Shown in pieces: positions 14,475 through 17,999 of a stretch of DNA of 64,000 nt (its first letter is position 1; each line of letters opens with the position of its first letter). Origin of the DNA: Sinohyriopsis cumingii (lineage: Eukaryota; Mollusca; Bivalvia; Unionida; Unionidae). Made by a program: the position numbers and the translations under genes. Below the pieces are notes generated by a model, which was given only the letters and a program-made list of their open reading frames with translations, searched no databases and was not told where the DNA came from. The stretch spans positions 23,904,590 through 23,968,589 of the forward strand of contig CM068842.1 in assembly GCA_028554795.2 (NCBI GenBank), written 5' to 3'.

Positions 14475-17400
14475 TTAAATAACTGCAGCAACACCTCTGC
14501 GTCGGTTACACTCAAGACAGGTCAACATCACATTTTCACGTGTATGACCGCGACTGCTATCTATTCTATCTACGGTGAATTGCCTTGGGTCGTTTTTCGA
14601 ATACTGCCACAGCAATAAACAATTACAACTCGCACAGTGATTATTCTGCTGTTGTTGTAATTGTATTACAAATTCAACATCCAAACTTTGTTTGGGATCA
14701 AACTCTCTACCATTTTTTTTGTCGCTCTGTTTGTAACCGGCTAATTTCTTTCTTATTGTGTCATCAGCGATTGAGCTGTCGTTGACAACATCATCTAATA
14801 CAATTCTTCGTAACTGACCTATCCTTCTTACTCTTGACACGGCTAAATAAACTAAATTTGACCACTCGATGCGATCATCAACAATCCAAACTGTTGTATC
14901 TGAAATAGTTAGTCCCTGCGAACTGTGGATGGTCATAGCGTATCCTAGCGTCCACGGGGATTTGCTCATTTTCAGTGCCTGTTCAACAGCATCAACATCA
15001 ACTGTGACAATATCATTTAATACTAAATTCTGTTTCTCCGGACCCGACGCAGTCAGGCGCCCTGGAATATCAACATCAATATTCTGCAATCGCGTATCAG
15101 CTGGTCTATAACACAACGGCACTGGCAACATGGGAAATTTCTTCTGATGTAACTGAAATAACCGCTGCTGTAGTGTGTCCCTGACTATCTTTCTACTTGC
15201 CACAATTAAATCACCTGGTTTCCACGTTTCCCAAAAGTCGCTCAGCGAAGTCTCTGGAATTATTTCACGCATTATCTCACACTGGACTTTATTGGTTTGT
15301 AGCCTGATCAGTGCCTTAAACTCTTTCAGCGTTTCATCGAGTGCTCTAACATCGTTAGTTATTTCCTCATAATAATCTACAAAAGTTTTCAGCCACTCGT
15401 GTGGAGATTCACCTGTAAATGGGGGTGGTTGACCATGATCGCCGCACATCACCACTGCGGTATTTTTCTTTAGCAGCCAATCCAGAAACTGTTTTAATGT
15501 ATCCAACGGCACAGTGTCTATCTCATCCCAGATTATTTTCTCGGGAATATATTTCGTTCCCATTCGTTCAGGTGTCCACGTGCCGCCGCTGTATTTGAAA
15601 AAACTGTGATACGTGCACGCGTTAACATCCCGTTGTCTCATCTCCCTGGCAAGTCTGTGTGTGGGAGTCAGCACGACCAAGTCAGAACCGCGAAATAATT
15701 CAATCGCCCGAGTTGTCTTACCAGAACCACCAGGGCCGTTTAGATAAACTGTTTTGTGTCTTGTAACAGGATCGTGCACCGGCGGAGACAACGAAACCGT
15801 CGAAGACATTTCTGCGCTGCGATACTCATCCACGATTTCAACGTCAGCTGATTCACAATATCCTTGTAACATTTCATTCTTTATTCTCCACGAGCCCCAC
15901 GATGGATCATCCGATATAACATTATCCAACAGCGCTGAGTATTTTTTATTAATATAAAATGAATCCGTTGCAACTCTCACTGCGACAACAGGGAATCTAT
16001 TAATCATCGACAACAAATTTATGGATACATAAGCTAGCATCGAAGATCTCAAATGTGTGTACTGAGATGATTCTCCGTCGATATAACTAAAAACAGTCCC
16101 TAGTTTTTCCCCGTTTGACAGAAACACATCTTCGCGGTTACAGAACATGTTGTTCGTGGCTGCATCAGCGACAACAAGATCCAATTCAGTCTTGTCCATG
16201 ATTAATCGACTGTGATGTTGTTTATGATCATACGCTCCACCTTGAGTGAATTTCCCTATTATTCTTCGTCCTAGATCTTTTGCTGTGCTTTCGTCATTTC
16301 TGAGTTTGTTTTTAAGTACTTCAGGAGCTTTCTTGATGATAGCGTCGATAGAAGTTTCTGGATATTCTCGTGACCAATCTTCGATGACTTCTTCTAATGT
16401 AACCGGCGTTGGAGTTGGCAACCAAACTTCGGTTTGACGACAATAACATATAATCGCTTCGCTGACCGTCAGCGACAACAGTATTCGACTGTCAAGCATG
16501 TATCGCAATAACACTATCGGTGCCCATCGCTTCTCAACGAAATGTCTGCCAAACCAAACATAACACACAGGATGTAAATCCTTAGCGAATTTAAACGACG
16601 ACACACAAGCAAATCCGGTCAAGTCAAAATCAGGCAATGGTCCGTTTACAGCAACTCTTGTCATCGAGTTTGTAACGTGGCCAAATCGTTTAAAATATTC
16701 GCTGCATTCTCCACGCCCAAGGAAACTTCCTGGATAACACGCCGTCATGTCGACGGATATCATACCGCGGTGATCATATCGAGTATTCCACAAACCGCCG
16801 TGTCCGTATTCAACACAGCTCTGTTGGATATCCGCAAGAAAACTTTTCGGAGTTGGTCTCCATGAATTTCGTTCCCGGGCTACATGTGCGGCAACACCCG
16901 GGACAGTAAAACAGTGTGTCAGTAATGTATCAGTGTTGCCCGCATTATATTTTTCTGCGAGTTTTTTCATTTCCTGCTGTAACGCCGTTGTTCTATATAT
17001 TTCCCCGTCGGGTCTCACAAACTGATCATATTCTCCATCTTCACTACTTCTGAATAACCACACAGACACCGGATCGGTTTTACTTATCTGATAAATAAAA
17101 TCAAACATGCTCCCAGAATTGCTTTGCAATTCCGGATAATACTTCACAACACGGTCTCGCGGGAATATCCTAACCGAGTCAGTCCAGGCGTGACTGTTAT
17201 GATCGATAATAGTTATTGGTGTTCCACGGGAATTGTATTTACACTCATACAATACCTCACCGGTTAACGATGAAACCGTTATAGGAAATTTTAGTAATCG
17301 CTCTAGCTCAGCAACATCATTTATTGACGCTCCTTTATCCGCTACTCGTGTCGCCCACGCTGTTATTTTAGTTTGTCTTAGCGGTGTTAGGCCGTTTCCT

Positions 17401-17999
17401 CGCATTGCATTTTTAAAATGTTCCATTACTCGCTCAGCTACACAATTCATCCTTGACTCTGTCAACGGCGACACCTTCATCGGTTTGAGTTTATCAACGC
17501 GTGGTTTCTTCATCGGATAAATTCCATAAACAACTGCGGTCACAGGATACGCTCTGGCATAATATGGTATATCAATCCCAACAAGTACTCCCGGTTTTGA
17601 GTCTTTACTTAACAGAACGGTTTTTCCACGAACGCCTCTGGCATCAAGAACAGGGTCTAGTTTGTCTCTGATAATCCACGTTCCCTCGCCGACTCCAACA
17701 ATAAATTTTATCTGTACGAAATATCTTCTATCGTCGAGATACCCAATTATGTTACGCGCGATTGTATCGTTCATGGTAGCATCAATGATACGGTCACGAG
17801 AAATGCTCGCGTTTCCGAGGATAATTTTATACGAAGACCACGTGTGTGCGGCACCATCACGACGAAACTCTTCTTTGGCATTCTTGATAACACCAATTAC
17901 CTCTGCTAACTCTCTTCGTCGTGGATCAGCGGTTAACCGGTCAAGATCGAATCTAGAACCTGATATGGGTTTTATTCTGGATAGTCTTTCAAAACCCAT
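14475..17999 (-). CDS. PolB: B-family DNA polymerase - SF1 helicase - HNH nuclease fusion
   Basis: One uninterrupted 1174-residue frame. Residues 1 to about 400 match nothing I recognise and could hold exonuclease or terminal-protein functions. A polymerase palm follows: motif A SVDMTACYPGSF (about 412-423), a possible motif B near KFTQGGAYDHK (about 583) and motif C VRVATDSFYI (about 675), where the usual first Asp of DTDS is Ala. An SF1 (Pif1/RecD-like) helicase spans about 750-1060: Walker A GPGGSGKTT (about 754), IIWDEID (about 823), VMCGDHGQPPP (about 850), TIHSSQGLT (about 1020) and VYLAVSRVRR (about 1048). The C-terminus (about 1115-1174) is a zinc-type HNH nuclease, with CASC and LTCLECN around FTVDRIDSSRGHT. 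Polintons normally replicate with a protein-primed polymerase lacking these appended domains. Start context is TAATAATG. Confidence 0.85.
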   Translation of the reverse strand: MGFERLSRIKPISGSRFDLDRLTADPRRRELAEVIGVIKNAKEEFRRDGAAHTWSSYKIILGNASISRDRIIDATMNDTIARNIIGYLDDRRYFVQIKFIVGVGEGTWIIRDKLDPVLDARGVRGKTVLLSKDSKPGVLVGIDIPYYARAYPVTAVVYGIYPMKKPRVDKLKPMKVSPLTESRMNCVAERVMEHFKNAMRGNGLTPLRQTKITAWATRVADKGASINDVAELERLLKFPITVSSLTGEVLYECKYNSRGTPITIIDHNSHAWTDSVRIFPRDRVVKYYPELQSNSGSMFDFIYQISKTDPVSVWLFRSSEDGEYDQFVRPDGEIYRTTALQQEMKKLAEKYNAGNTDTLLTHCFTVPGVAAHVARERNSWRPTPKSFLADIQQSCVEYGHGGLWNTRYDHRGMISVDMTACYPGSFLGRGECSEYFKRFGHVTNSMTRVAVNGPLPDFDLTGFACVSSFKFAKDLHPVCYVWFGRHFVEKRWAPIVLLRYMLDSRILLSLTVSEAIICYCRQTEVWLPTPTPVTLEEVIEDWSREYPETSIDAIIKKAPEVLKNKLRNDESTAKDLGRRIIGKFTQGGAYDHKQHHSRLIMDKTELDLVVADAATNNMFCNREDVFLSNGEKLGTVFSYIDGESSQYTHLRSSMLAYVSINLLSMINRFPVVAVRVATDSFYINKKYSALLDNVISDDPSWGSWRIKNEMLQGYCESADVEIVDEYRSAEMSSTVSLSPPVHDPVTRHKTVYLNGPGGSGKTTRAIELFRGSDLVVLTPTHRLAREMRQRDVNACTYHSFFKYSGGTWTPERMGTKYIPEKIIWDEIDTVPLDTLKQFLDWLLKKNTAVVMCGDHGQPPPFTGESPHEWLKTFVDYYEEITNDVRALDETLKEFKALIRLQTNKVQCEIMREIIPETSLSDFWETWKPGDLIVASRKIVRDTLQQRLFQLHQKKFPMLPVPLCYRPADTRLQNIDVDIPGRLTASGPEKQNLVLNDIVTVDVDAVEQALKMSKSPWTLGYAMTIHSSQGLTISDTTVWIVDDRIEWSNLVYLAVSRVRRIGQLRRIVLDDVVNDSSIADDTIRKKLAGYKQSDKKNGREFDPKQSLDVEFVIQLQQQQNNHCASCNCLLLWQYSKNDPRQFTVDRIDSSRGHTRENVMLTCLECNRRRGVAAVI

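What the first reader, a model, noticed from the sequence alone, without database searches (positions are those of the whole stretch)
14475..17999. Polymerase, SF1 helicase and HNH nuclease fused in one Polinton protein
A single 1174-codon frame carries B-family palm motifs, a complete-looking set of SF1 helicase motifs and a C-terminal zinc HNH domain. Known Polintons encode a stand-alone protein-primed polymerase; a one-protein replisome of this kind is not a form I know to be described. It suggests a distinct Polinton lineage with its own replication strategy.
Basis: partly seen in the sequence, partly recalled or inferred. Interest (0 to 1): 0.88.

Follow-up and report, generated by a model that had tools for sequence, protein, structure and literature searches.

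The report
Polinton with fused polymerase, helicase, nuclease
A virus-like jumping element in a large, probably mollusc, genome seems to copy itself with one big protein that joins a DNA polymerase, a helicase and a nuclease; this kind of fused enzyme is already described from other elements, and here it sits in an element that multiplied recently in what is most likely an animal.

Summary
A 1174-codon minus-strand frame (17999..14475) joins a protein-primed-type B polymerase palm, a PIF1/Dda-type SF1 helicase and a C-terminal HNH nuclease. It lies in a 16,188-bp element (11949-28136) with 310/310 identical TIRs, a 5-bp target duplication, RVE integrase, packaging ATPase, protease and double-jelly-roll capsid gene. 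It is no artefact: the 39 scored genome places (best of a long candidate list, window included) are all 98-100% identical and full length, 38 without stops; 40 of 45 relatives from other datasets show palm motifs plus the helicase Walker A.

The claim that the form is undescribed fails. It matches the published 'Tlr1-like helicase' (pPolB-S1H) of polinton-like viruses, Tlr1 and transpovirons: palm lacking the first Asp of motif C, no recognisable exonuclease, a likely OTU-like domain upstream, C-terminal HNH or GIY-YIG. Direct sequence kinship to Tlr1 was not tested.

What appears new, within what I could search, is the setting: a Polinton-type element in a 2.9-Gb genome, with relatives in named mollusc genomes (Elysia, Sinanodonta, Potamilus), recently amplified, with an endonuclease-VII-like nuclease kept in all 30 aligned relatives that reach it. 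Verdict: new member of a known kind.

The parts
11944..11948 (.). left copy of 5-bp target-site duplication CGACG
11949..12258 (+). left terminal inverted repeat, 310 bp, begins AG
   Evidence: 310/310 identical to the right TIR
12252..13004 (-). A32/FtsK-type packaging ATPase, 250 aa
   Evidence: Pfam Pox_A32 E 5.3e-14
13461..14450 (+). RVE-type integrase, 329 aa
   Evidence: Pfam rve E 1.2e-8, above cut-off; NCBIfam IS481 transposase E 2.9e-14, below its cut-off
14475..17999 (-). fused replication protein, 1174 aa
17511..17957 (-). residues 15-163: alpha/beta domain in the position of the terminal-protein domain; identity open
17172..17477 (-). residues 175-276: likely OTU-protease-like domain, Cys186 and His267/His270
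15840..16862 (-). residues 380-720: protein-primed-type PolB palm (D417; K583-G587; A677-T-D679)
14808..15773 (-). residues 743-1064: SF1 (PIF1/Dda/RecD2-like) helicase
   Evidence: motifs
14493..14744 (-). residues 1086-1169: HNH nuclease, endonuclease-VII-like, CxxC...DR...H...N...CxxC
18380..18916 (+). separate HNH_3-type endonuclease, 178 aa
   Evidence: Pfam HNH_3 E 1.2e-17
21645..22475 (-). 276-aa ORF, unassigned (minor capsid protein is a guess)
   Evidence: no Pfam or PHROG match
22958..23968 (-). fibre-like protein, 336 aa
   Evidence: Pfam Phage_T7_tail E 8.9e-6
23987..24427 (-). adenain-like cysteine protease, 146 aa
   Evidence: Pfam Peptidase_C5 E 0.0071, below cut-off
24877..26217 (-). 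[quoted passage not shown]
   Evidence: Pfam DJR-like_dom E 3.1e-19; 43 relatives
27827..28136 (-). right terminal inverted repeat, 310 bp, ends CT
28137..28141 (.). right copy of target-site duplication CGACG

Best explanation
The frame encodes the replicase of a Polinton-type endogenous virus/transposon. It is a pPolB-S1H ('Tlr1-like helicase') type protein with the order alpha/beta (putative terminal-protein) domain, likely OTU-like protease, palm, SF1 helicase, HNH. Most likely mechanism: the element replicates as linear DNA from its terminal inverted repeats by protein priming (inferred from the palm class and the TIRs). The OTU-like domain cuts the primer domain loose (inferred). The palm extends the strand (inferred). 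The tethered PIF1/Dda-type helicase unwinds ahead of it and makes up for the missing exonuclease (inferred; proposed in PMC11071308). The endonuclease-VII-like HNH domain nicks or resolves branched replication intermediates, or acts in homing (inferred). The RVE integrase inserts the copy with a 5-bp duplication (duplications shown; the enzyme's part inferred). Shown here: the fused frame, domain folds and motifs, element boundaries, recent multiplication, and fewer replacement than silent changes per site among copies.
Confidence: 0.8

Rival explanations
1. The same architecture arose independently: a Polinton polymerase of this lineage lost its exonuclease and captured its own SF1 helicase and HNH, so it is a convergent fusion and not a member of the Tlr1-like family.
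For: RVE integrase, 5-bp duplication and 310-bp TIRs are Polinton-like. A different fusion order (helicase first) is reported to have arisen independently in OmPLV (PMC12721341 passages). No direct sequence link to Tlr1 proteins was obtained.
Against: Same domain order, same loss of the first motif-C Asp, same loss of exonuclease and a C-terminal HNH as published; the Tlr1 element also carries an RVE integrase.
Confidence: 0.2
2. The palm is catalytically dead; the protein works as a helicase-nuclease and DNA synthesis is done by another polymerase.
For: Motif C lacks the first metal-binding Asp in 35 of 35 rows. The authors of PMC11071308 once held this view for Tlr1-like proteins.
Against: D417, K583 and D679 are invariant in 35 rows. 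Palm pN/pS is 0.27. Several polymerases lacking that Asp are active according to PMC11071308. No other polymerase was recognised among 14 of the element's 16 ORFs of 100 aa or more; this is weak, as Pfam misses this palm too.
Confidence: 0.15
3. The C-terminal HNH is only a homing-endonuclease passenger, without part in replication.
For: PMC11071308 explains C-terminal HNH/GIY-YIG domains by such invasions. A separate HNH_3 gene lies next to it at 18380-18916.
Against: Eight zinc- and catalytic-type residues are invariant in the 31 of 35 rows of A1 that reach it, on both sides of the tree; the other 4 rows end before it, for reasons not checked. The best PHROG nuclease match is endonuclease VII, while the neighbouring gene is HNH_3 type. 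pN/pS 0.18, on few changes.
Confidence: 0.35
4. The frame is an assembly or read-through artefact, or a host gene.
For: None found.
Against: 39 of 39 scored genome places; 38 relatives from other datasets, 30 of 45 in all showing palm, helicase and HNH signatures together; TIR and duplication boundaries.
Confidence: 0.01

Closest known systems
Tlr1-like helicase / pPolB-S1H fusion of polinton-like viruses, Tetrahymena Tlr1 element and transpovirons (PMC11071308: section 10 and other passages)
   Same: Order of domains, protein-primed palm without the first motif-C Asp, no recognisable exonuclease, likely OTU-like domain upstream, SF1 helicase, C-terminal HNH (GIY-YIG in others); Tlr1 also has an RVE integrase.
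   Different: Host here is a 2.9-Gb genome, probably a mollusc; I found no published animal example in what I could search. The nuclease is endonuclease-VII-like and constant in the aligned relatives that reach it. Direct sequence kinship untested.
Animal Polinton/Maverick (recalled family features)
   Same: About 16 kb, TIRs AG...CT, 5-bp duplication, RVE integrase, packaging ATPase, cysteine protease, double-jelly-roll capsid protein.
   Different: No stand-alone pPolB with exonuclease was found; the polymerase is fused to SF1 helicase and HNH.
OmPLV SF1H-pPolB of Oxyrrhis marina (PMC12721341 passages)
   Same: One protein with SF1 helicase and pPolB.
   Different: Helicase is N-terminal and the exonuclease is retained there.
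HNH-helicase proteins of Rhodomonas, Cryptomonas and Symbiodinium PLVs (PMC12220804 passages)
   Same: HNH joined to a helicase in a PLV.
   Different: HNH is N-terminal to the helicase there; it is C-terminal here.

Membership tests
pPolB-S1H (Tlr1-like helicase) | protein-primed PolB palm | tested here: met
pPolB-S1H (Tlr1-like helicase) | motif C lacks its first Asp | tested here: met
   Ala677 in 35 of 35 rows
pPolB-S1H (Tlr1-like helicase) | exonuclease domain absent | tested here: met
   no invariant or 90%-conserved Asp/Glu between residues 273 and 396 of A1; caveat: the phi29 alignment starts at phi29 residue 55, inside its exonuclease
pPolB-S1H (Tlr1-like helicase) | vOTU domain next to the palm with catalytic Cys and His | tested here: inconclusive
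pPolB-S1H (Tlr1-like helicase) | alpha/beta terminal-protein-like middle domain | tested here: inconclusive
   alpha/beta domain at residues 15-163, no clear fold match
pPolB-S1H (Tlr1-like helicase) | SF1 helicase C-terminal to the palm | tested here: met
pPolB-S1H (Tlr1-like helicase) | C-terminal HNH or GIY-YIG (in some members) | tested here: met
   PHROG endonuclease VII E 2.5e-9; viral HNH match over 103 columns, 30% identity, rmsd 2.5; invariant residues 31/31 rows reaching it; Pfam HNH below cut-off
pPolB-S1H (Tlr1-like helicase) | sequence kinship with Tlr1 / transpoviron proteins in a tree | not tested
   no such named sequence came back; the best viral fold match H6WBE3 (E 4.5e-20 over 1141 columns, TM 0.23, rmsd 27.7) carries no name
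Polinton/Maverick | TIRs and 5-6 bp target duplication | tested here: met
   window; 9 of 10 further copies, one of them inside a TA repeat
Polinton/Maverick | RVE integrase, packaging ATPase, protease, DJR capsid protein | tested here: met
   the protease match is below the Pfam cut-off
Polinton/Maverick | minor capsid (penton) protein | tested here: inconclusive
   276-aa ORF at 21645-22475 has no Pfam or PHROG match
Polinton/Maverick | stand-alone pPolB with exonuclease | tested here: not met
   the polymerase is part of the 1174-aa fusion
OmPLV-type SF1H-pPolB | helicase N-terminal, exonuclease retained | tested here: not met
   helicase at 743-1064, palm at 380-720

The most novel reading that the evidence does not exclude
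A mollusc lineage of Polinton-type viruses replicates with a one-protein replisome (primer domain, self-cleaving protease, polymerase, helicase and an endonuclease-VII-like resolvase) and is amplifying now in the host genome. The nuclease is a working part of the replisome, not a homing passenger.
Probability: 0.35. Interest if true: 0.7.

Novelty: new member of a known kind. Interest (0 to 1): 0.45.

Why it matters
It carries a replicase type described from polinton-like viruses, a ciliate element and transpovirons into a Polinton-type element of what is most likely an animal genome, with many nearly identical open copies. That gives a natural, recent system in which to ask whether a palm lacking the first motif-C Asp is active, whether these proteins are cleaved by their own OTU-like domain, and whether the C-terminal nuclease belongs to replication.

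Tried and rejected
Stand-alone Polinton pPolB: rejected, since the frame continues through the helicase and HNH in the 39 scored places. Artefact: rejected. Splicing into separate products: not tested, only made unnecessary by the open frame. Viral contigs: a scan with A1 gave one relative, L001, a 447-aa SF1 helicase ORF at 25% identity and not a fusion; scans with the capsid protein and the ATPase as single proteins, which find close relatives only, gave none. Phage records: 14 of 50,697 with 24.8-35.6% matches to helicase or HNH pieces only. Prokaryote genomes: one relative, a 3,152-bp contig binned as 'Candidatus Diapherotrites'. The profile search for more distant relatives returned no named Tlr1 or transpoviron protein; only 7,987 candidates were scored, so this shows no absence. 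Fold search of model 1-375 against viral proteins gave only weak long alignments. Rfam at gathering thresholds: nothing in the window. PDB sequence search with the capsid protein gave nothing usable. Own-genome searches with the capsid protein and with a metazoan marker family (PF00110) did not complete, so the animal nature of the host was not tested directly.

Full report
WHAT IS THERE. The given coordinates hold a single open frame of 1174 codons on the minus strand; no other ATG-led ORF of 100 aa or more is listed inside it, and the forward reading of the same stretch is full of stops in its first frame. The longest stop-free run in the element is 1181 codons, against at most 195 in 200 mononucleotide shuffles. 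The frame lies inside an element bounded by terminal inverted repeats. The repeats are 310/310 identical, begin AG and end CT, and are flanked by the 5-bp duplication CGACG; the element is 11949-28136, 16,188 bp. It also encodes a packaging ATPase, RVE integrase, adenain-like protease (weak match), double-jelly-roll capsid protein, a fibre-like protein and a separate HNH_3 endonuclease.

MOTIFS. In alignment A1 (window plus 34 of the 38 relatives; P0035-P0038, 646-905 aa, were left out) D417, K583 and D679 are invariant, while the residue before motif C's Thr/Ile678 is Ala in 35 of 35. The core residues of SF1 motifs I, II and III are invariant in 35 rows; motifs V and VI are present in the 32 rows that reach them. 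The HNH residues C1122, C1125, D1144, R1145, H1152, N1156, C1161 and C1164 are invariant in 31 of 31 rows that reach them, 30 relatives and the window; P0003, P0004, P0033 and P0034 end before. A pattern count over all 45 relatives finds palm motif A or C plus Walker A in 40, and palm, Walker A, motifs II and V and the HNH signature together in 30. The five with palm only are 462-733 aa long (P0038, P0041-P0043, P0045). P0039 from Elysia lacks motif II but has HNH. Motif and OTU residue names are recalled knowledge placed on these counts.

COPIES IN THE HOST GENOME. The window lies in a genome of 2.905 Gb in 1138 contigs. Of 38,073 first-look candidates 39 were scored, the window's own included: all 39 are copies of the fused protein at 98-100% identity (38 over residues 1-1174, one over 1-1173), 38 have no internal stop and one has a single TAG. 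These are the best-scoring places, so the share of intact copies in the genome is not known. A search with the left TIR gave 1291 first-look candidates. Only 40 were scored; all 40 are 100% identical, on contigs C1 and C2 only, and 30 of the 40 form 15 head-to-head pairs 16.1-16.4 kb apart. Counts are lower bounds by the tool's own statement. Of 10 further copies, picked by me from the upper part of the list, whose two ends I read, 9 have TIRs at both ends and matching 5-bp duplications, one of these inside a TA repeat; 8 of these 9 have 310/310 identical TIR pairs that differ from the window's by 2-3 bases, one has 308/310; the tenth has a rearranged low end. Both ends of these 8 copies thus share the same variants, which fits replication as a unit and recent insertion. 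Among 24 of the 39 copies (23 distinct coding sequences; the copy with the stop not among them) pooled pN/pS is 0.249 (pS 0.0335, pN 0.0084, 253 pairs). By region: N-terminal 0.489, palm 0.269, SF1 0.181, HNH 0.176. pS itself is uneven (0.011, 0.047, 0.051, 0.008), which suggests recombination between copies and makes the ratios rough; single comparisons can run higher, e.g. 30 replacement against 23 silent differences between the window and L029.

WHO ELSE HAS IT. 38 relatives at E <= 0.001, four of them 58-83% identical, the rest 37-47%. The profile search added seven, among them proteins named from Elysia crispata (two) and Sinanodonta woodiana (one, on a database contig of 143 Mb). Capsid relatives (43) include one protein of Sinanodonta woodiana, on a contig of 165 Mb, and one of Potamilus streckersoni. 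These five proteins are the only relatives that carry a species name; the three species are molluscs. In the tree (42 rows, midpoint root for drawing only) the window falls with three other copies of its genome, four unnamed relatives and Sinanodonta in a starred group of 9 rows, and Elysia falls on the other side; the tool warns that the Sinanodonta row is long, under half filled, and may be misplaced. The database contig of one polymerase relative (P0016) and of one capsid relative (P0066) both measure 37,906 bases, so they probably are the same contig (not verified). That the host is an animal, and probably a mollusc, is inference from these names, genome size and repeat texture. The marker search meant to test it did not complete.

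COMPARISON WITH PRINT. PMC11071308 (section 10 in full; passages) states that Tlr1-like helicases of polinton-like viruses and transpovirons carry a protein-primed palm, lack the first Asp of motif C, have an active-looking vOTU next to the palm, lack the exonuclease and in different PLVs end in GIY-YIG or HNH, and proposes to call them pPolB-S1H fusions. PMC12721341 (passages) reports a fusion of the opposite order and calls the Tlr1 type previously reported. PMC12220804 (passages) reports HNH-helicase fusions in cryptophyte and Symbiodinium PLVs and cites PLVs in stony corals and with entomopoxviruses. [quoted passage not shown] PMC4642659, PMC10328495 and PMC3671162 were seen in passages only. 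The 2016 fusion paper, the coral paper and the entomopoxvirus paper are not held, so an animal host for this fusion may already be in print. In my ten searches no listed title, abstract start or passage that I saw reports one; most listed papers were seen as listings only, and one search listed 20 of 726.

VERDICT. The element is best filed as a Polinton-type element with a pPolB-S1H-HNH replicase: a new member of a known kind, apparently in a new host range, and recently amplified. It fails the 'stand-alone pPolB' feature of classic Polintons and is not filed as one on that ground. Protein priming, self-cleavage, polymerase activity and the role of the nuclease are inferences.

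Noticed in passing
window 41281-52002: A second, decayed Polinton-like element: 147-nt inverted arms 84% alike, a capsid remnant at 49047-49853(-) with 32% identity over 282 aa, E 1e-30, and a protease remnant at 48159-48344(-); no remnant of the fused replicase was found there at E <= 0.01. The ORF at 42093-42431(-) resembles the C-terminus of a classic stand-alone pPolB from memory only; Pfam gave nothing.
   Followed up: partly
L050 (JAADDH010000070.1, 3,152 bp): A contig binned as 'Candidatus Diapherotrites archaeon' encodes a relative, 43% identical in its best segment, over residues 240-1054; probably misbinned eukaryotic or viral DNA, like the Woesearchaeota case in PMC12721341.
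   Followed up: no
host genome C12:8737859 and C12:8747176 (L008, L009): Two copies of the gene with identical coding sequence lie only 9.3 kb apart, less than one element length; tandem, nested or assembly artefact.
   Followed up: no
host genome C10:31875646-31877646 (L034): One copy has a normal right TIR but a rearranged left TIR.
   Followed up: no
window 18380-18916: A free-standing HNH_3-type endonuclease gene beside a replicase that already ends in a different HNH domain.
   Followed up: partly
window 16266-16415 (residues about 529-578): An insert of roughly 40 residues before motif B is present in the window, P0001, P0002 and P0004, partly in P0003, and absent from the other rows of A1.
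   Followed up: no
window 14475-17999, copies in the host genome: Silent diversity between copies is about four- to six-fold higher in palm and helicase than in the N-terminal part and the HNH, which suggests recombination between subfamilies.
   Followed up: no
window 33884-35503 and 62-85-nt repeats near 3731, 39410, 39544, 52563, 62315, 62503: A tandem array visible as repetitive frames and short high-identity inverted repeats that look like MITE or SINE pieces.
   Followed up: no
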